The notes under the pieces: model-generated | The model's input: the letters and a program-made list of their open reading frames with translations, nothing else | Database searches by the model: none | What the model was told of the DNA's origin: nothing | DNA from: Aspidapion aeneum | Taxonomy: Eukaryota; Arthropoda; Insecta; Coleoptera; Brentidae | Assembly: GCA_963576565.1 (NCBI GenBank) | Contig: OY755047.1 | Location: forward strand, 31,912,851 to 31,976,850 | Reading direction: 5' to 3' | DNA: 64,000 bases | Part shown: piece by piece, positions 3,985 to 57,720 of the stretch | Layout: every line of letters begins with the position of its first letter | How positions within the stretch are numbered: position 1 is the stretch's first letter | Made by a program: the position numbers and the translations under genes

Positions 3985-4257
3985 AGGTAAAGAAACAGCG
4001 AGTATCAAAATAGCGATGTATCAAAATAGCGTTTGTAACAAAACAGCGATGTATCAAAATAGCGACTATCAAATTAGCGACAACCAAAATAGCAATGTAT
4101 CAATATAGCGACAATCAAAATAGCGTCAATCAAAATGGCGATGTATCAAAATAGCGATGTATCAAAATAGAAAATAGCACCCTTTAAAATCCCGGGAAAA
4201 AAGTCAGGAATATTTTTTTTTTAATACGCTATTGTGTTCCATCGCTATTTTGTACCG
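3985..4257. mobile_element. Foldback minisatellite element, AGCG core
   Basis: The left arm has about a dozen ~16-bp units of the type TATCAAAATAGCGATG (3994-4170). The right arm holds reverse-complement units ending ATCGCTATTTTGTACC. Both ends begin GGTA when read inward. Between the arms is a segment, ATCCCGGGAAAAAAGTCAGG (about 4189-4208), that recurs inverted in the foldback element at 27342-28234. No target duplication was identified. The structure resembles Drosophila FB elements, whose inverted repeats are tandem arrays. Membership in one family with the 27-kb element is inferred. Confidence 0.65.
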
Positions 4258-4764
4258 GAGCCATATGGTATATAAATAAAATTATTGTTATTACCACCCC
4301 ATTTAGATGAGTAGAGCAGTAGACCAATAATAATTATACTAATTATAATTAGTACTTATTTCAGTCTGTTTTTCTTCTCCCTTGACTCCCGTTTATCTTA
4401 ATTCTTAACTTCCATTACGTTTTGCCGCAGTAATTATTTAGATCGCCTCATCACATGTGCTAAATGAACGCAAGTTACCTTCTTGAAAGTGGGCCGGCTA
4501 ATTTTGTTTCCTTTTTCAGTCTTCCAACCCCCTAAGGAGTTTTTTTACCAAAAATGTTCTTTTAGGAAAAAATGTTTGTAACGTTGAAAAGAAAGCGTTT
4601 TTCGCTTATGTCGACTTGTTTAAACTCAACTTTATACTGTTTGTGCCACGTCCACCGACGGAGCTACAGGGGCCTGGAGGCCATGCCCCTCCCCCCCAGA
4701 GCTCTCCAGGTACCTACTCCAGAAAAATGTGGCAACAAAATATTGAAAAAGCTGACGTATATAA
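4258..4764. other. No recognised feature
   Basis: AT-rich sequence. A short C-rich patch at 4660-4710 resembles a MITE terminus, but no partner end was found. The 89-codon open frame at 4572-4841 runs into repeat sequence and is not supported as a gene. Confidence 0.4.
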
Positions 4765-23639: not shown

Positions 23640-24680
23640 ACAATAAAAATTATTTATTATGAAATTTTAATTTAGTGATATCGACAGATTGGGTTAGGTT
23701 TGAAATAAATATTTTAAATCATTTTAATATCCTACCGGTATTAGCTCACACTACTACTATACTATAGTAGTGTGAGCTATGGTGATCCTAATTTTTTCGA
23801 GAAAAAAAAAGTTGCTCCGATTTTAAAAATTTTTATATATCTTTGCGTTTCAGATGATTTTGTCTCTCTGTCTGTCTGTCTGCCTGTAACGACCAACGCG
23901 CATAACTCAAAAACTGCTTGCCCGATTTTAATGAAATTTAGTACCTACGCTGGGTTTTGGTTCGAGATGGTCCCATTTAAAAATGAACAAAATCCACCGA
24001 ACACAAGCCAAATAAAAGGGTGGGGGTATATTTCAAAAATTAGAGTTTATGTGAAAATATGGCGTGTGTGATATCAAACGAAAGGTAATTGAGTATGGAG
24101 TTAAACAAAATACATTTTAGTTTTAAAAAAAAGGTGGGGGTAGATTTGGAAAATTAAAGTTTAAGTCAAAACATGGCTTGTGTGGTATCAAACGAAAGGT
24201 AATTGAGTCTGGAGTTCAATAAAATATATTTCAGTTTTTAGTTATATTAGCTCACACGTACACTATAACTATAGTACCTAGTGTGAGCTTAGGTGCCCAT
24301 AGATTGGCAGAGTATTTTTTTATTTAAGGGCTTAAATGTGCAAAATGTACAGTACGCGCCATATAGCGTCCAACAAAATATCGCCTATGATCAAAAATAG
24401 CGCAGCATATTACCTGGCAAATACAGTAATATAAGTAATAATAAGTAAAAAAAAGGCGCAAAAAAATACTGGGCAAACAAATACCGCGCAAGGTTTTAAC
24501 CCCTCAAGATAAAAACTGCGTAGCCCATAACCGCGCAAAAAATACTGTGCAAGGCTTTAACCGCGTAAAATAGTAAACCGCGCAGCCCATCACCGCGCAA
24601 TGATTTAACCGCGCAAATACAAAAATCGCGCAACAAAAATAAAGCCCTCAAACAGAAACCGCTTCATTAATGCGCCAATA
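23640..24680. repeat. GCGC-core minisatellite element, copy 1
   Basis: A leader containing GACAGATTGGGTTAGG is followed by a degenerate array of roughly 14-base units around the core CCGCGCAA (24318-24655). The array is bounded by AAGGGCTT (about 24328) and AAGCCCT (about 24645) in opposite orientation. The leader and array recur at 28620-29000 without the Helitron-like insertion, which supplies an empty site for it. The pattern resembles the other foldback minisatellites here, but the array has only one orientation. Confidence 0.65.
23741..24314 (-). mobile_element. Helitron-like non-autonomous element, copy B
   Basis: Reverse-oriented relative to copy A and 574 bp long. On the minus strand it runs from TACTCTGCCAATC to a terminal hairpin plus CTAA. 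Its flanks are an A-run on one side and TACCGG on the other. The related locus at about 28730 is continuous across this point (CCTACCGATATTTTTTTT), showing that the insertion added no duplicated bases. It contains two of the ~115-bp internal repeats and a TCTG microsatellite. A 99-codon open frame from 23772 has no family match known to me. Confidence 0.65.
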
Positions 24681-25589: not shown

Positions 25590-26279
25590 CAGGGTGTCCC
25601 ATAGTTTCGGGGTCATAGGCCAACAGGTGATCGGGGAGGTTATGCCTGATAAAAAAGTTCCTATAATGCAGGGGTCAAAACTCTTTCTTTGTCGAGATAC
25701 AGAGCATCAAAGTTGGCGATTTATTAAACTTTTTTAATAATAACTTTAAAAAAAAACGCAGTAAAAATATGAAATTAGGTAAAGTTGTGTATTAGAACAA
25801 GAGCAACACATTGAAATAAAAATAATTTTTAAAACAATTAGTTGGCCAATTTTTTTTAGAAAAAACTATTTTATTGGTATGTCCATTTTTATGAATGCCA
25901 TATTAAAAGCAATGTTTTTTTATATTTTTTTGTAATAAAAACAAGTTTCTAGCGAGACAGTAATAAAATAATATTAATATTTTTTAAAAGAATAAGTAAG
26001 CAAAAATTATTATTTTTTATACATTTGTGGAGGTTATTTTGACAGCCTGTCTAGACATATTCTCAACTTATGATTTTATCAAAAAAAAAGAATAACACAT
26101 TTTTGAATCCCAATTAGCTGAGTATTTAGCTGGAGGCGACAGATTTTCTTTGTTTTCTAAAACTCTTTTTCCCTCACTCCTCTAACTTTAAAAATCCTAT
26201 ATCTTAAAATAGATGTTTTCTCGGAAATCACCTCCTCTATCACCTACTGCACTATGGCCCTAAGTTATGAGATAGTCTG
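25590..26279. mobile_element. 690-bp element with CAGGGTGTCC end, TA target
   Basis: It starts CAGGGTGTCCCATAG. The other end, read inverted, is CAGACTATCTCATAACTTAG, an imperfect terminal repeat of about 30 bases. TA flanks both sides. Removing it joins ANI and YSKATT in the LINE frame, allowing for one or two TA repeats. CAGGGTG ends with TA duplication fit Tc1/mariner-type non-autonomous elements. No transposase is visible. Confidence 0.6.
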
Positions 26280-26640
26280 TATATATAGCAAAGCAACAAC
26301 ATCAATCAAAATCCATGAAGGAAGCAAGCCAAGCCGCATAAGAAGGGGTGTCAGCCAGAATTACACAATATCCCCTAAACTATTTAACCAGGCCTTAGAA
26401 GATGTTTTCAAAAACTAAGATTGGGAAGAAATAGGCATCAAAGTGAGCGGACAATACTTGAACCACCTAAGATATGCTGACGATATCGCCTTAACAACAG
26501 ATAAGAAAGAAGAACTCATCAAAATGCTGGAAGAAGTGGATACAGCAGCTAAAAATATAGGCTTGAGTATGAACTACACAAATAAAGATATTACGATCAG
26601 AATAAACCAAGAAAAAATAGAACAAGTAGAGGAATATATA

Positions 26641-26820
26641 CAAGGTGACAATTTAAAAAGGATCCACCTGGATTTTCTCGAAAATTATCACGAAATTAAA
26701 AAAACGCCGAAACACGTCGATTTTGTTTGCAAGGGGGCACTTTTTGGCTATTTTAAAATTTTTGTAGCACGAACCCCCTTCGAGAAAATCCAGGTGGATC
26801 CTTTTTAAATCGTCACCTTG
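26641..26820. mobile_element. 180-bp MITE, Tc1/mariner-like
   Basis: The terminal inverted repeats are about 42 bp, starting CAAGGTGACAATTTAAAAAG on the left and, inverted, CAAGGTGACGATTTAAAAAG on the right. They continue through GGATCCACCTGGATTTTCTC. A TA duplication flanks the element (26639-26640 and 26821-26822). Removing the element with one TA restores the LINE codons for VEEYIYLG. The terminal repeats are almost identical, so the insertion is fairly recent. It creates a misleading hybrid open frame, 26443-26808. Confidence 0.85.
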
Positions 26821-27341
26821 TATATCTGGGACAAATTATTACACTTAAAAAAGAAAACCAAACAGCTGAATTCAAGAGACGAGTAAGATTGGAATGGGCA
26901 GCATTTCGTAAATTAAGCTACATATTAAAAAATAAAAAATATCCTCAGTACCTCATAACGAAAGTGTATAACCCATGTATACTTTATGTATTTACCTATG
27001 AATCTCAGACCTGGACACATACAAAATAAAAACATGGATAAAACAAACAAATGTTACATATAAAGCTAACAGATAGAAAATGAAATGAATGGATAAGAAA
27101 TAAAACAAAAGTAAGGGATGTCAGAGGAGTAGCAAAATTAAAATAAAAATTTGCCGGTCATATCAGACAGAAAGACGATGGATAGATTGTAGACTGGAAA
27201 CATTGGGAAAATAAAAGAAGTAGGGGAAGGCTCCAAATGATTTGGGCAGACGATTTCAAGAAACATGCAGGGAATAGATGGATAAACACAGCGACAGACA
27301 GAGAAGAGTGGAAGATATTGGGGGAGGCCTATGTCCAAAGA

Positions 27342-28234
27342 GGGTGGCGGAACAGAGATCGAAGGACAAAAGATCGAAAGACAAAAGATCGAATACAAAA
27401 GATCGAAAAACCAAAGATCGAAAAGACAAAAGATCGAAATACAAAAGGTCGAAAAGACAAAAAATCGAAACCCCAAAAGATCGAAAAACAAAAATCGAAA
27501 GTACAAAAGATCGAAAAACAAAAGATCGAAAAACAAAAGATCGAAAAACAAAAGATCGAAAAACAAAAGATCGAAAATGCAAAAGATCGAAAATACAAAA
27601 GATCGAAAAACAAAAGATCGAAGGACAAACGATCGAAAGTACAAAAGATCGAAAATAGCGCGTTTCAAAATATCGCTATTACATAGTTTTAAAAAAAAAA
27701 CTTTCCTGACTTATTTTCCGGGATCCTAGAGGGTGTGTAACTAAACCGAACTGAGCAGAACCGGTTCGACTATGGGGTCTCTTTCTAACATAAATAATTT
27801 CAAAAAAAAACTTTCCTCAAATGTTTTATATGATTTATGTTAAGTATGACAAGCCATTGGTTTATTTAACGGTTAGGTAATTTTACCTTACCTGACCTTG
27901 CTTAAACTGTTTATGTGAATATACCTAAGCAAACATGAAACGCGTCATTTTGTATATTTCGATCTTGTCTACTTGCGATTTTTTTTCGATCTTTTGTCTT
28001 CTGATATTTTGTTTTTTGATCTTTTGCCTTTCGATGTTTTGTCTTTCGATCTTCTGTATTTTCGATCTTTTGTTTTTCGATCTTCTGTATTTTCGATCTT
28101 TTGTTTTTCGATCTTTTGTATTTTCGATCTTTTGCCTTTTCGATCTTTTGTTTTTCGATCTTTTGTATTTCGATGTTTTGTATTCGATCTTTTGTCTTTC
28201 GATCTTTTTTCTTTCGATCTTTGTTCCGCCACCC
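27342..28234. mobile_element. Foldback element with GATCGAAA minisatellite arms
   Basis: This 893-bp element has ends GGGTGGCGGAAC / GTTCCGCCACCC. The left arm (27357-27657) holds about 20 units of the type GATCGAAAAACAAAA. The right arm (27957-28221) holds a similar number inverted. A perfect 9-bp duplication, GTCCAAAGA, flanks it (27333-27341 and 28235-28243). Its removal restores the LINE end AYVQRWIAEG plus stop. The core contains an inverted match (27702-27724) to the core of the element at 3985. A 9-bp duplication and minisatellite arms are features of Drosophila FB elements. Open frames over the arms on all strands are low-complexity artefacts. Confidence 0.85.
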
Positions 28235-28339
28235 GTCCAAAGATGGATCGCAGAAGGCTAAATAGATAGACCCTGTACATTCGATGCATAAGTCCATTAT
28301 AAGTCAATATATTTTACTGCCCTTGATGGCGTGACCGAC

Positions 28340-42849: not shown

Positions 42850-45800
42850 TTAAAGGACACTTTAATATAATCCATTGAAAATAGGCCAAATCTTAATCTT
42901 GTCAATTTTACAATCTGTTCCAAAAAAAATATTTAGAAAAAAACGGATAAAAATCAGTATTTTGATTTAGCCTTAAGGAGGACAGTAGAGCTAATTTAAG
43001 GGAAAATAAGTTTAATTAGGAAGCTCGCCGAAGATTTATTTCTCAAATTTCAATATATATTATTTATTTTTTTAATAAAAACGCATTTTGACATTAATTT
43101 TTGGCGCATGCTCATATGATGGAATTCATCTCGGTCTTTAACGCCTCGTCAGCTGTCAGCTGATCAGTGTTAGTTTGATGATTGCCTATACGATGCACAT
43201 ATTTTTAGACGGATCAATAGAAGAGGCCGATTTTTACATAGTGGCGTGGGGCTGTAAAGGATCTTAAAATGCTACCGGTATCTGTACACATGTTAAAGCT
43301 CATCAAGAGTACTTTATTATAAGCCAGTTGAAGTAGAAAAAATCCGACTAAAAATGAGTTATTGTTAATTTTGAAACTGTTCCGAAAAAACTTTCCAACA
43401 AAAAATGAATAGAAAATAGTATTTGGCTGTCAACATGTCAAAGCGCATAGGGGGCATTTTAATATAACCCAGTTAAAATGGAAAAAAACCGATAAAAAAT
43501 TAGTTTTTCTTAATTTTAAAACTGTTCCGAAATTTTTTTTTTTACAAAAAATGGAACAAAAGTAGTATTTTGCCGTTGGCTGTGTTAACATGTCAAAGCG
43601 CATCAAGGGCATTTTAATATAACCCAGTCAAAATGGAAAAAACCGATAAAAATGAGTTTTTCTTAATTTTAAAACTGTTCCGAAAAAACTTTTATTCAAA
43701 AAAATAAATTAAAAGTAGTATTTTACCGTTGCCTATCAACATGTCAAAGCGCATCAGGGGCATTTTAATATAACCCAGTTAAAATGGGAAAAAACCGATA
43801 AAAAATGAGTTTTTCTTAATTTTGAAACTGTTCCGAAAAAAACTTTTATTCAAAAAAATAAATTAAAAGTTTTATTTTACCGTTGCCTATCAACATGTCA
43901 AAGCGCATTAGGGGCATTTTAATATAACCCAGTCAAAATGGGAAAAAAACCGATAAAAAATGAGTTTTTCTTAATTTTGAAACCGTTCAGAAAAAACTTT
44001 TATTCAAAAAATAAATTAAAAGTAGTATTTTACCGTTGCCTATCAACATGTCAAAGCGCATCAGGGGCATTTTAATACAACCCAGTCAAAATGCGAAAAA
44101 ACCGATAAGCGCATCAGGGGCATTTTAATATAACCCAGTCAAAATGCGAAAAAACCAATAAAAATCGAGTTTTTCTTAATTTTAAAACTGTTCCGAAAAA
44201 ACTTTTCTACAAAAAATGAATTAAAAGTATTATTTTACCGTTGCCTATCAACATATCAAAGCGCATTAGGAGCATTTTAATATAACCCAGTCAAAATGGG
44301 AAAAAACCGATCAAAAATGAGTTTTTCTTAATTTTGAAACCGTTCCGAAAAAAACTTTTATTCAAAAAATAAATTAAAAGTAGTATTTTACCGCTGCCTA
44401 TCAACATGTCAAAGCGCATCAGGGGCATTTTAATATAACCCAGTCAAAATGGGAAAAAACCGATAAAAAATGAGCTTTTCTTAGTTTTGAAACCGTTCCG
44501 GAAAAAGCTTTTATTTAAAAAATAAATTAAAAGTAGTATTTTACCGTTGCCTATCAACATGTCAAAGCGCATTAGGGGCATTTTAATATAACCCAGTCAA
44601 AATGGGAAAAAACCGATCAAAAATGAGCTTTTCTTAGTTTTGAAACCGTTCAGAAAAAAACTTTTATTCAAAAAATAAATTAAAAGTAGTATTTTACCGT
44701 TGCCTATCAACATGTCAAAGCGCATCAGGGGCATTTTAATATAACCCAGTCAAAATGCGAAAAAACCGATAAGCGCATCAGGGGCATTTTAATATAACCC
44801 AGTCAAAATGCGAAAAAACCAATAAAAATCGAGTTTTTCTTAATTTTAAAACTGTTCCGAAAAAAACTTTTCTACAAAAAATGAATTAGAAGTTTTATTT
44901 TACCGTTGCCTATCAACATGTCAAAGCGCATTAGGGGCATTTTAATATAACCCAGTCAAAATGGGAAAAAACCGATAAAAAATGAGTTTTTCTTAATTTT
45001 GAAACCGTTCAGAAAAAAACTTTTATTCAAAAAATAAATTTAAAGTAGTATTTTACCGTTGCCTATCAACATGTCAAAGCGCATCAGGGGCATTTTAATA
45101 TAACCCAGTCAAAATGCGAAAAAACCGATAAGCGCATCAGGGGCATTTTAATATAACCCAGTCAAAATGCGAAAAAACCAATAAAAATCGAGTTTTTCTT
45201 AATTTTAAAACTGTTCCGAAAAAAACTTTTCTACAAAAAATTAATTAAAAGTATTATTTTACCGTTGCCTATCAATATATCAAAGCGCATTAGGAGCATT
45301 TTAATATAACCCAGTCAAAATGGGAAAAAACCGATCAAAAATGAGTTTTTCATAATTTTGAAACCGTTCCGAAAAAAACTTTTATTCAAAAAATAAATTA
45401 AAAGTAGTATTTTACCGTTGCCTATCAACATGTCAAAGCGCATCAGGGGCATTTTAATATAACCCAGTCAAAATGGGAAAAAACCGATAAAAAATGAGCT
45501 TTTCTTAGTTTTGAAACCGTTCCGGAAAAAGCTTTTATTTAAGAAATAAATTAAAAGTAGTATTTTACCGTTGCCTATCAACATGTCAAAGCGCATTAGG
45601 GGCATTTTAATATAACCCAGTCAAAATGGGAAAAAACCGATAAAAAATGAGTTTTTCTTAATTTTGAAACTGTTCCGAAAAAAAGTTTTTTTCGGAACAG
45701 TTTTAGAATTAAGAAAAAGTTATTCTTTTCGATTTTTTCAATTTTGACTGGGTTATATTAAAATGCCCTTGATGCGCTTTGACATGTTGAAAGACAACGG

Positions 45801-45985
45801 CAAAATACTACTTTTAATTCATTTTTTGTAGAAAATTTTTTTTGGAACACTTTCAAAATTATGAAAAACTCATTTTTTATCGGTTTTTTTCCATTTTGAA
45901 CAGGTTACATTTTAACGCCCTTGTTGCGCTTTGAAATGTTCACAGGCAACGGCAAAATGCTACTTTTATTCCATTTTTTTTGTAG
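42850..45985. repeat. ~155-bp satellite array with higher-order order and inversion
   Basis: TCAAAGCGCATYAGGGGC recurs about every 150-158 bp, near 43437, 43595, 43747, 43899, 44051, 44258, 44408, 44565, 44715, 44923, 45075, 45282, 45433 and 45590. ~56-bp truncated units lie at 44106, 44770 and 45130. Units share ACCGATAAAAAATGAG, AACTGTTCCGAAAAAA and GTAGTATTTTACCGTTGCC. Variants repeat in the order B-C-D-E-F at 44051 and again at 45075. At about 45686 the array turns into the opposite orientation (to about 45985). The units before 43400 are decayed. Confidence 0.9.
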
Positions 45986-46221
45986 AAAAACCACATTACT
46001 TATTATTCCTAATAATTAAAGTTTTAATTAACTTTAATGAACATCTTTGGGAAGGATATTTAGGAAATTTTTTCTATTTTGACTGGGTCAATAAGTTTTT
46101 TATGAATCCCTTATTATATCTGAGAAAACGTTGACACTTGTTGTGTCAAAAATTTTCAACAACAGGCAACCATAACAAAAGAGATAAAGCTTGACTGAAG
46201 ATATTGAGTTTCGTTGAGTAT

Positions 46222-55117: not shown

Positions 55118-57720
55118 TCTAGAAGCATTTTATATTACTTTTTGGCAAATGGGCAATTCCCCCTATTTTGACCCCGCTGAATCCGAATATCCCTGTTGAC
55201 AACTCGAAATATTGACAGGGGCTGAGATATTCAAGATGGCGGCCAAAATGGCGGCGGAATTTTAAATTGCCGCTGGATAGCCGAAATTGTCACAGGTGTA
55301 CATTCAAAATATATATTTGTATAATTAAAAAATAATAACATATTTTTTTTTTAGTGGCTGCAAAAACCTTTAAAAACCCCCCCAGACCCCCAAAATCTGA
55401 AAGTTTGAGGTTTTTTCAAATTTTCTTTTAAAAAAAACTAAGCTTCTAAGAGAAAAATGTATAATATACTTTATTGTAGACAATAAAATTCCCTTTTCAA
55501 CATGGTATAACTTAATAAAGTTAGACTAATAACAAGCTCTCCAGCGGCGTCCTTTAATTGAAGTAATTAAAAAAAGTTGAAAAAATACCTATGTTTTTTC
55601 CAAGATTTATTTAATTTTTTTTAAAACTAATTCCTACAGAAAACCATGTATTACCATTTGGTATACTTAATAAAATATCCTTCAAAATGACGTATAACAT
55701 GGTTAAATCGGTTTTATAAATAAAACTTCAGGGGCATCCGTAAATTAAATTAATTTTGAAAAAACAGAAAATAAACCATTTTTGTTACATGTTTTATCTA
55801 ATTTGCTCAAAAACTAAGCTTAACATGAAAAAACTTATTCTACACTTTATTGTAGACAGGGAAATTCCCTTTTTAAAAATGTGAAACTCGGTGGGGTTTG
55901 ACTTACAGCAAACTCTCCACCGACGTCCGTCAATGTCAATTTCAACAAATCATTAAAAAAAAACATGTTTTTCGTAGGTTTTATTCAATTTTCTTAAAAA
56001 CCAAGCTCTTTATCAAAAAATGTGTTCTTTACTTCGTCATAGCCAATAAAATTTCCTTTCAAACGATGTATAACAAAGTGGAAGTTATTTCATATTTACC
56101 GCTCCAGTGGTGTTCTTAATTTAAAGAAATTATTTAAGATCAATCCAAACTAATCAATTTTGTGTCTTATTAGCTTTTCGATGGATAATAAAGGGCGGCG
56201 GATAAAAGGTCGAAAGTACGAAAGGTCGAAAAAATAAGGTCGAAAGTACAAAAGGTCGAAAGTAGAAAAGGTCGAAAGTACAAAAGATCAAAAAACAAAA
56301 GGTCGAAAGTTCAAAAGGTCGAAAGTACAAAAGGCCGAAAGTACAAAAGATCGAAAGTACGGCCGCGGGTCCACATCAACTACACAGGTCAATTCGACTT
56401 GATACGGTAAATTTGTATTTTTAATATTTTGTTTTGTCGATTTTTTTCGACCTTTTGTACTTTCAACCTTTTATGACTTCGGCGGCGGGCCCGGTATTAA
56501 ATTGTTTTTTTAAACAGTGTGTCACAAAATGTGACCCATAGTATAGAAAACTCTCCAGGGGCGTCCGTAAATTGCAAAAATTCTCAAAAAATATTATTTT
56601 TGTTACGGGTTTCATTCAATTTCCATCAAAATCTCAATTTCAATTTCAATTTCAGTGTGGCGCGGCGAAGCTAGTGGATCAGTGAATAATACTATGGGAC
56701 CTGTTCATAAATTGCATAAGTATGAGGCAAAAAAATATCTAACTCTTCCTAACAGGTTGACAGGTTGGTTGGAGTACCTAATTATGATTATGCCCCCCCC
56801 CCAAACCGTTGCATAAGATTCACCACTTTATTTTTAGTTCCATATGCTTAAAAAAATAAACAAAAACACCTGTGTCAAAGTTACTACTGTTACTTTCTGC
56901 ACAAAAATATTGCTTAGGGGGGGTCATGGCCCCTATGCCCCTTCCCCTTATAACCACCGGTGTTTTTTTGCTTTAAAGAACTTATTTAGATAAATCAAAA
57001 TATCTAATCTAATCAAAAAACAGTTTATTTTAATTTGGAAACATTTTATTTTAGTAGGTATAAATTACGAACCTTTTTAAAGTATTTATCATAACATTAA
57101 CCTCACTTTGTAATATATCATCTAAAAAGAAATTGTCTTATCCTCAATAAAGAATAAAGGCACATTTTTTTCTGAAAATCTTAGTTAGAAAAAATATTTA
57201 AATATGCAAGAGAAACTGATTATTTCAGTTATTTTTGAAAATAAGTTTATATTAGTACGCTCCTGAAGCCCTAAATATGGCAACAACCCGACATTTTAAT
57301 AAAGTTTTTAAAATAAAATGTTATGTTCTACAATAAAGTATACTACATATTTTTTCCTAAAAAGAGTAGTTTTTGAGAAAATTTTGAAAAACCTATAATA
57401 AACATGTTTTTTCTAAATAATCCCATTTTACGTACGCCACTGAAGAGCTACTTGCTTTTCCTAAGCTTATTGACCAATACATCGTTGGAAAGGGAATTTT
57501 ATTCTCCACAAAAAACTGTTTTTTGCAATTTTTGATAAAAAGGTTAGTTTTCGAGAAAATTGCATAAAACTAAAAAAGATACAGGTTTTTGGGGGTTTGG
57601 GGGGGATTTTCTCCGTCCCTGTCGATTTTTCGAGTTGGCAACAGAGAAATTCGGATTCAGCGGGGTCAAATTAGGGGGAAATGGTCTGTTGCCAAAAAGT
57701 AATATGATTTGCTTCTAGAA
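55118..57720. repeat. 2.6-kb palindrome related to 39581-42514
   Basis: The ends TTCTAGAAGC (55118) and GCTTCTAGAA (57720) are inverted. Pairing continues inward through ATATTACTTTTTGGCAA and TTTGACCCCGCTGAATCCG. A second inverted pair is the ACCCCCAAAATCT and TTTTTGGGGGTTTGGGG segments. The interior is made of the same diverged monomers as the 2.9-kb palindrome (CTCCAGCGGCGTCC, CCGCTCCAGTGGTG). A foldback minisatellite (56193-56492) interrupts it. The left arm contains AAGATGGCGGCCAAAATGGC without an obvious counterpart. Confidence 0.8.
56193..56492. mobile_element. Foldback element with GGTCGAAAGTAC arms
   Basis: The ends GGGCGGCGG (left) and, inverted, GGGCCCGCCGCCG (right) are both followed by ATAAAAGG. 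The left arm has about ten ~16-bp units of the type GGTCGAAAGTACAAAA (56208-56360). The right arm has a few inverted units to about 56475. Flanking nine-base words GATAATAAA (56184-56192) and GGTATTAAA (56493-56501) match at seven of nine positions, consistent with a decayed 9-bp duplication like that of the 27342 element. The unit sequence is close to that element's GATCGAAA unit. Confidence 0.7.

What the first reader, a model, noticed from the sequence alone, without database searches (positions are those of the whole stretch)
27342..28234. FB-like foldback element with GATCGAAA minisatellite arms and a clean 9-bp target duplication
The ends GGGTGGCGGAAC are followed by about 20 short GATCGAAA units in each arm, in opposite orientation. 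GTCCAAAGA flanks both sides, and its removal restores the LINE C-terminus. Drosophila FB elements share tandem-repeat arms and a 9-bp duplication (established), but this unit and these ends are not ones I recognise. It may represent an undescribed FB-type lineage.
Basis: partly seen in the sequence, partly recalled or inferred. Interest (0 to 1): 0.75.

Follow-up and report, generated by a model that had tools for sequence, protein, structure and literature searches.

The report
Foldback transposon with minisatellite arms
A short, gene-less jumping DNA with mirror-image repeat arms sits in an older mobile element of what looks like a beetle genome; it has hundreds of copies, belongs with a known class of Mutator-like transposons, and its mixed arms hint that such passengers can change the enzyme that moves them.

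Summary
The 893-bp element (27342-28234) has perfect 12-bp ends, inverted arms of 20 and about 16 units of 15-16 bp, and a 9-bp target duplication; 39 of 40 listed genome matches show the empty site. The genome (1.29 Gb, beetle-like) holds 855 matching termini (reversed control 0). All 19 two-ended copies examined have 9-bp (15) or 10-bp (4) duplications. None of the 19 encodes a recognisable MULE transposase.

The same genome has Mutator-like (MULE) transposase loci, several with an upstream FLYWCH finger; 11 of 15 read loci of that group carry a 15-16-bp array 3' of the gene, with differing units, and one transposase lies between inverted arms. That architecture is published for Muta1 (Aedes) and Tm1 (nematode). 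So: a new non-autonomous family of a known kind. Its own transposase was not found; only part of the candidates could be read.

Possibly new: near-constant unit spacing with changing unit sequence, and composite arms. In 15 of 19 copies one arm keeps inner AATAGCG units typical of another MULE clade, suggesting arm replacement and a change of transposase.

The parts
27333..27341 (.). target site duplication, left (GTCCAAAGA)
   Evidence: empty site in 39 of 40 listed matches
28235..28243 (.). target site duplication, right (GTCCAAAGA)
27342..28234 (.). non-autonomous foldback element, 893 bp
27342..27353 (+). terminal block GGGTGGCGGAAC
   Evidence: 855 genome matches of the 22-bp end GGGTGGCGGAACAAAGATCGAA at <=1 mismatch
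28223..28234 (-). terminal block GGGTGGCGGAAC, inverted
27356..27655 (+). left arm, 15-bp unit AGATCGAAAAACAAA, about 20 units
27957..28222 (-). right arm, same unit inverted, about 16 units; TRF array 27984-28222, one further unit at 27957
27652..27660 (+). single inner unit AAAATAGCG, typical of another MULE family (L032, L033)
   Evidence: present in 15 of 19 copies, on one arm only, inward of the GATCGAAA array
27656..27826 (+). middle, side A
27686..27735 (+). inner domain, 84% over 50 bp to the AATAGCG-armed relic at 3993 and 88% over 49 bp to MULE locus L046
27827..27983 (+). middle, side B; a probe of 27826-27965 has 1337 first-look candidates in the genome, the 40 scored at 96-100%
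26340..28261 (+). 3' part of a decayed LINE interrupted by the element; stop codon at 28259-28261 (start approximate)
56193..56492 (.). older relative: left end GGGCGGCGGATAAAAGG, unit AAAAGGTCGAAAGTAC, flanks GATAATAAA / GGTATTAAA match at 7 of 9
   Evidence: ends and flanks by reading
3993..4262 (.). decayed relative with AATAGCG units; right end reads GGCTCCGGTACAAAATAGCG inwards, left end unclear

Best explanation
The element is a non-autonomous foldback member of the MULE (Mutator-like) superfamily, moved in trans by a FLYWCH-type (Phantom/Muta-like) transposase. Shown: termini, arms, 9-10-bp duplications, copy number, no recognisable MULE transposase of its own in 19 copies, and the same arm architecture on MULE loci of the same genome. 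Inferred: the transposase's zinc finger binds the CG-centred unit repeated every ~15.5 bp (about 1.5 helical turns), many weak sites raise occupancy at each end, the DDE domain cuts at the 12-bp terminal block and inserts at a staggered 9-10-bp cut. Arm length then drifts by unequal exchange or slippage.
For: 855 termini (414 forward, 441 reverse, <=1 mismatch in 22 bp; reversed-pattern control 0 and 0). 19 of 19 two-ended copies (of 21 places read) have a 9-bp (15) or 10-bp (4) duplication with <=1 mismatch, 16 exact; pairing flanks of different copies gives 214 of 36043. First base purine in 15 of 19, last base pyrimidine in 17 of 19. PF10551 (MULE) matches 66 places (99 of 99 candidates scored). 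Of 20 MULE loci read 3' of the DDE domain, 15 are in the group that the L031 transposase piece finds: 11 of these 15 have a 15-16-bp array (or its 31-bp dimer, L029) starting about 1.0-1.5 kb downstream; 0 of the other 5 do. Of 7 further loci of that group read in short pieces, 5 have one. One MULE match (C6:101094871-101095326) lies between inverted arms at C6:101093841 (+) and C6:101096115 (-). FLYWCH (PF04500) lies upstream on the same strand at 7 of the 15, in the same 407-aa frame at L031 (150 of 301 candidates scored). Two decayed MULE loci have AAAGATCGAAA-type units at the expected distance: L055, L056. D, D, C-x2-H and E residues conserved among relatives.
Against: No copy joins GGGTGGCGGAAC ends to a MULE transposase. 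By eye, none of 40 scored middle-probe hits (of 1337 candidates) and none of the 100 listed termini (of 855, on C1 and early C2) lies within 10 kb of a MULE match. In L055 the units form a small separate foldback beside the MULE, so it may be an adjacent insertion; in L056 a second terminus faces away. The two-armed C6 element shows no target duplication (GCCCCCCAT / GTTTATCAC). 4 of 15 loci of the group (L043, L044, L047, L048) lack a 15-16-bp array within 1.6 kb; L044 has one at 3 kb. Of the 7 short pieces, L051 and L054 show none. FLYWCH was not listed for 8 of the 15. Transposase binding to the units is untested.
Confidence: 0.85

Rival explanations
1. [quoted passage not shown]
For: 9-bp duplications and minisatellite termini; Rehavkus-1_TC is from a beetle and has short tandem arrays in its inverted termini (passages of PMC6446971, and PMC10218199).
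Against: MULE loci here with comparable 15-16-bp arms have an upstream FLYWCH finger (7 of the 15 loci of the group), not reported for Rehavkus in the passages seen. The Rehavkus-1_TC repeat is 164 bp. PHD was not searched for here.
Confidence: 0.06
2. It is a true relative of the Drosophila FB element, moved by an FB/NOF-type transposase.
Against: The architecture arises in several superfamilies (passages of PMC4079207, and PMC3169594). MULE loci with similar ends and unit spacing are present in this very genome. FB sequence was not compared.
Confidence: 0.06
3. The arms are ordinary minisatellites that expanded around a short MITE; repeat sequence and spacing have no role in transposition.
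For: Minisatellites expand by slippage; unit number varies from 9 to 21 per arm, and the alternation of 15 and 16 steps is weak (0.574 against 0.527 in permutations, 56 of 2000 reach it).
Against: Arms sit at both ends, inverted, in 19 of 19 copies. TRF, free to choose any period up to 500, gives 15 or 16 for 10 of the 11 MULE arrays near the gene and a 31-bp dimer for the other. Agreement of 7 family consensus units is reached by 29 of 5000 shuffles (families are related, so this is not a clean test). In Aedes, 10 of 12 long-TIR MULE families have such repeats (PMC5225508).
Confidence: 0.1

Closest known systems
Muta1 and Muta5, Aedes aegypti MULEs (PMC5225508, passages seen)
   Same: MULE with FLYWCH finger (13 of 14 Aedes families); TIR of a short terminal motif plus subterminal tandem repeats (12 bp with 3-4-bp spacers in Muta1, i.e. 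15-16-bp steps; 15 bp in Muta5); 8-9-bp duplications; over 300 non-autonomous derivatives of Muta1 with variable middles; called a type 2 foldback.
   Different: Longer arms here (median 17 units against 9), other unit and terminal sequence, 9-10-bp duplications, composite arms with a second unit type, autonomous copy not found.
Tm1, Meloidogyne Mutator/foldback family (PMC3169594, passages seen)
   Same: Composite arms of 13-15-bp tandem repeats, mostly 9-bp duplications, FLYWCH-MULE transposase of Phantom type, non-autonomous copies.
   Different: Asymmetric 7-bp terminal motifs in Tm1; inverted 12-bp ends here; different unit; host nematode.
Drosophila FB foldback elements
   Same: Tandem-repeat inverted arms and 9-bp duplication.
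   Different: Kinship not tested; unit and ends not compared.
Rehavkus (PMC6446971 and PMC10218199, passages seen)
   Same: 9-bp duplications, minisatellites near termini, insects.
   Different: PHD-finger transposase and a 164-bp unit reported there; FLYWCH-type relatives and 15-16-bp units here.
Tetris, Drosophila virilis (PMC4079207, passages seen)
   Same: Non-autonomous foldback with tandem repeats in arms, 8-10-bp duplications, autonomous partner not found, arms seeding satellite arrays.
   Different: ~220-bp units and an outer flanking domain.

Membership tests
MULE superfamily, FLYWCH/Phantom-type, non-autonomous | 8-10-bp target duplications | tested here: met
   19 of 19 two-ended copies, 9 bp (15) or 10 bp (4); mixed-flank control 214 of 36043
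MULE superfamily, FLYWCH/Phantom-type, non-autonomous | long TIRs with short subterminal tandem repeats | tested here: met
   15-16-bp units in both arms of 19 of 19 copies
MULE superfamily, FLYWCH/Phantom-type, non-autonomous | ends shared with an element encoding a FLYWCH + MULE transposase | tested here: inconclusive
   No transposase between GGGTGGCGGAAC ends found. Nearest armed MULE ends: L031 GGGCGAGGGCCAAAACATCG and L041 GGGTCGCGGTTCGTTTGTCG; decayed MULE loci L055 and L056 have AAAGATCGAAA-type units
MULE superfamily, FLYWCH/Phantom-type, non-autonomous | DDE catalytic residues in the related transposases | tested here: met
   Alignment A1 of 10 rows (4 local pieces, 6 database proteins): D24 in all but L030 (E), D87, C108, H111 and E217 invariant
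Rehavkus | PHD finger in the transposase | tested here: inconclusive
   Relatives carry FLYWCH upstream at 7 of 15 loci; PHD itself was not searched, and the partner transposase is unknown
Drosophila FB | sequence similarity of ends, unit or transposase to FB/NOF | not tested
Drosophila FB | inverted tandem-repeat arms and 9-bp duplication | tested here: met
   shared with several superfamilies, so not diagnostic
Galileo / P superfamily foldback | 7-bp target duplications (length recalled) | tested here: not met
   9 or 10 bp in 19 of 19

The most novel reading that the evidence does not exclude
In this genome a radiation of FLYWCH-MULEs conserves the geometry of its transposase-binding arms (the CG of the first unit at bases 19-20 in 6 of 6 ends with a set boundary, then one site every ~15.5 bp) while the site sequence changes with the transposase: TCGAAA-type units in one transposase clade, AGCG-type in the other. 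Non-autonomous foldbacks can change masters: this family kept an inner domain and a few AATAGCG units from an AGCG-type ancestor but was overgrown from the termini by GATCGAAA units, switching to a TCGAAA-clade transposase.
Probability: 0.3. Interest if true: 0.62.

Novelty: new member of a known kind. Interest (0 to 1): 0.4.

Why it matters
Why some transposons carry long arrays of tandem repeats in their arms is an old question. This genome offers sister families whose repeat units differ in sequence but hardly in spacing, next to their own transposases: a natural series in which a recognition code (finger against unit) could be read and tested. The composite arms suggest how a gene-less element could escape the extinction of its transposase. 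The element also shows how MULE arms feed minisatellites into a genome.

Tried and rejected
Looked for a transposase inside longer copies. L017 (2506 bp) is long because of a (CGAAC)n microsatellite of 1.37 kb; L027 (3222 bp) because of inserted sequence with a 199-aa frame that resembles a Tc1/mariner-type transposase (motifs recalled; no Pfam family at E<=0.001). Neither is taken as the element's own enzyme.

Looked for a MULE with these arms. The flanks of 27 MULE loci were read in part (20; 7). Only L055 and L056 have runs of AAAGATCGAAA-type units (scan of the 20, the 7 by eye); the L041 group has GATCGAAA in another context (TTTTGATCGAAAATC). The 17-mer terminus seen in L055/L056 (GTGGCGAAACAAACATC) occurs 3 times in the genome, against 1 for the reversed control. 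A probe for side B of the middle gave 40 scored of 1337 candidates, none near a listed MULE match.

Tested strict 15/16 alternation of unit steps: weak (56 of 2000 permutations reach it), not used. Outer steps look fixed by position across 38 arms, but copies were chosen by similarity to one end; on 16 arms not used for selection the pattern is weaker, so it is not claimed. The mean steps come from chains that allowed only 13-18-bp (or 28-33-bp) steps, so they are bounded by construction; TRF is the free test. A resemblance of the middle to the C-terminal coding end of L046 (77% over 48 bp, partly low complexity) was not relied on. An earlier count of seven ends with the first-unit CG at bases 19-20 included L046 on an assumption that its sequence does not bear out; L036 and L046, single copies without a set boundary, are now left out.

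A search of the held papers for the end and unit sequences returned 0 papers; listings for beetle/foldback/MULE and Phantom/FLYWCH/subterminal terms show no paper that names such a family in a beetle. Repbase and Dfam were not available, so 'undescribed' means only this.

Full report
What is there. The window lies in an unnamed 1.286-Gb genome, G000:C10:31912851-31976850. The best-scoring named relatives of a LINE reverse transcriptase in the window are from beetles (Sitophilus, Coccinella, Harmonia, Dendroctonus, Cylas), so the host is probably a beetle; this is inference, and the named relatives of a MULE transposase of the genome are from a shrimp and thrips, which says little, since MULEs may cross species. 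Folded as one strand it is far more stable than shuffles (-262.8 against -100.1, sd 4.8, 20 shuffles).

The insertion is clean. The host sequence is the 3' end of a LINE. With the insert and one duplicate left out, the frame is open over the 150 bases checked and ends ...EEWKILGEAYVQRWIAEG*. The 160-bp joined site matches 39 other places across the junction among 40 listed (40 of 1104 candidates scored); the fortieth is the window's own right flank.

It is a family. The 22-bp end GGGTGGCGGAACAAAGATCGAA with <=1 mismatch occurs 414 + 441 times, the reversed control 0 + 0; if each copy has two such ends that is about 430 copies. A first DNA search scored 40 of 1093 candidates, the 40 places at 95-100%. 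I read 21 of these places (L001 and L009-L028; L002-L008 repeat seven of them). Nineteen have both ends; L010 and L024 show one end only and were left out of the counts. All 19 have a duplication: 9 bp in 15, 10 bp in 4, 16 exact and 3 with one mismatch; mixing flanks of different copies gives 214 of 36043. The duplications prefer purine at the first base (15 of 19) and pyrimidine at the last (17 of 19; combined binomial p = 2.4e-5). Lengths run from 604 to 3222 bp. A protein comparison of the 19 with the 20 local MULE pieces gave no hit better than E = 0.28; L027 contains a foreign transposase-like frame.

Which transposase class. PF10551 (MULE) matches 66 places, all 99 candidates scored; the L031 transposase piece gives 119 matches (150 of 174 candidates scored). 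I read about 3.7 kb 3' of the DDE domain at 20 loci. Fifteen of these are matched by the L031 piece; I call them the FLYWCH-type group. Eleven of the 15 have a 15-16-bp array, or its 31-bp dimer (L029), starting about 1.0-1.5 kb from the DDE start: L029, L030, L031, L032, L033, L034, L036, L041, L042, L045, L046. L044 has one at about 3 kb; L043, L047 and L048 have none in what I read. The other five (L035, L037, L038, L039, L040) have none within 1.6 kb; L040 has a short 14-bp array at about 2.3 kb. L037 is an IS256-like transposase (Transposase_mut, 230 bits), L035 also matches Transposase_mut (22.6 bits, cut-off 21), L040 matches a ZSWIM RNase H-like model above its cut-off and L038 below it; L039 was not scanned. 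FLYWCH (PF04500) lies upstream, same strand, at 7 of the 15: L029, L030, L031, L036, L041, L042, L043 (150 of 301 candidates scored); it was not listed for the other 8. Of 38 database relatives of the L034 piece, 36 carry PF10551 and 21 PF04500. Conserved residues fit a DDE enzyme.

An element with a transposase between two arms. The L034 arm as a probe hits C6:101093841-101093960 (+) and C6:101095996-101096115 (-), on both sides of the MULE match at C6:101094871-101095326. The left piece starts GGCGCTGGTACAAAAGAGCGCAGGTCAAAAGAGCGC. No target duplication is visible there. So arms of this kind belong to MULE transposons, not merely to short derivatives.

Link to the window's unit. The nearest armed ends are those of L031 (GGGCGAGGGCCAAAACATCGAAACACAAAATGTCGAAAG against GGGTGGCGGAACAAAGATCGAAAGACAAAAGATCGAAAG) and of the L041 group, whose arms hold TTTTGATCGAAAATC. 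Two decayed MULE loci, C6:107547424 (L056) and C4:81722804 (L055), have AAAGATCGAAA-type units 1.1-1.3 kb from the DDE start. In L056 some units have the orientation expected of a 3' arm, followed by a terminus facing away; in L055 they form a small foldback with its own terminus, so an adjacent insertion is possible. No intact partner was found.

Geometry and turnover. TRF, free in its choice of period, gives 15 or 16 bp for 10 of the 11 MULE arrays near the gene and 31 bp for L029. In 8 arrays read from the end inwards (window element, window 56193, L031, L041, L032, L034, L036, L046) the mean step is 15.00-15.64 bp, but that script allowed only 13-18-bp or doubled steps. Five of the 8 consensus units read CAAAA-N3-CG (window element, 56193, L031, L032, L034); L046 has TAAAA-N3-CG, L036 fits with another gap, and L041 has T where others have A. 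Agreement of 7 of these consensuses (56193 left out), outside the CG anchor, is reached by 29 of 5000 shuffles; the families are related and n is small. In the 6 ends whose boundary is set by a duplication or by flanks that diverge between copies (window element, 56193, L031, L041, L032, L034), the CG of the first unit is at bases 19-20 by reading; L036 and L046 have no set boundary and are left out. A tree of 14 transposase pieces (L029 too short, 5 outside the group dropped beforehand) splits L030, L031, L041, L042 (TCGAAA-type arrays) with L043 and L047 (no array) from L032, L033, L034, L045, L046 (AGCG-type) with L036, L044 and L048, support 95/98; L036 and L044 are long branches. Nineteen copies of the window's family were checked for AAAATAGCG, the unit of L032 and L033: 15 have it, on one arm only, always inward of the last GATCGAAA unit. 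The inner domain is 84% identical over 50 bp to the AATAGCG-armed relic at 3993 (no hit in the random window pieces compared, at most 300) and 88% over 49 bp to L046. The reading I favour is replacement of arms from the terminus inwards; recombination between two foldbacks is the alternative.

Comparison with the literature. I saw passages, not whole texts. Muta1: 9 copies of a 12-bp repeat with 3-4-bp spacers, 8-9-bp duplications, classed as type 2 foldback; 10 of 12 long-TIR MULE families of Aedes have 9-15-bp subterminal repeats; 13 of 14 families have FLYWCH (PMC5225508). Tm1: 13-15-bp repeats, mostly 9-bp duplications, FLYWCH-MULE transposase (PMC3169594). Table 1 of PMC6446971 notes none, FLYWCH or SWIM, and a minisatellite after the ORF in aphids, for Phantom, and a PHD finger with minisatellite for Rehavkus. 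A 2026 survey reports 322 complete MULEs in arthropods (PMC13359780, abstract start and passages); whether this family is among them I could not check. The element works like, and by architecture belongs with, FLYWCH-type MULE foldbacks; formal membership awaits the partner transposase.

Verdict. The element is a new non-autonomous family of a known kind. The wider pattern, near-constant spacing with changing units and composite arms, is the part worth following.

Noticed in passing
window 56193-56492: An older relative with end GGGCGGCGG and unit AAAAGGTCGAAAGTAC; flanks GATAATAAA and GGTATTAAA agree at 7 of 9 bases.
   Followed up: partly
window 3993-4262: A decayed foldback relic with AATAGCG units whose inner domain resembles that of the main element.
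   Followed up: partly
window 24360-24660: Degenerate CGCGCAA-type units similar to the arm unit of MULE locus L036 (by reading).
   Followed up: no
window 25590-26286 and 26641-26821: Two other short insertions inside the same decayed LINE, the second with inverted ends (read by eye, limits approximate).
   Followed up: no
window 43288-45989: Satellite-like tandem array with 153-bp unit and higher-order periods of about 205 and 359 bp.
   Followed up: no
G000:C3:137117167-138396435: About 118 of the 150 listed FLYWCH matches cluster in 1.3 Mb, reminiscent of an expanded mod(mdg4)-type locus (recalled, not tested).
   Followed up: no
G000:C97 (L037) and C118: An IS256-like transposase on C97 (Transposase_mut, 230 bits), and frames of the same length on C118, suggest that these small contigs are bacterial, perhaps from a symbiont.
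   Followed up: no
G000:C10:6984497-6988668: Seven termini of the L041 arm family in the same orientation within about 4 kb: arms seeding a satellite-like array.
   Followed up: no
L017:7923-9294: A (CGAAC)n microsatellite of about 1.37 kb inside one copy of the element; shorter pentanucleotide arrays occur in the middle of 8 other copies.
   Followed up: partly
L027:7867-8466: 199-aa frame of a transposase-like protein inserted in the middle of one copy; no Pfam family at E<=0.001.
   Followed up: partly
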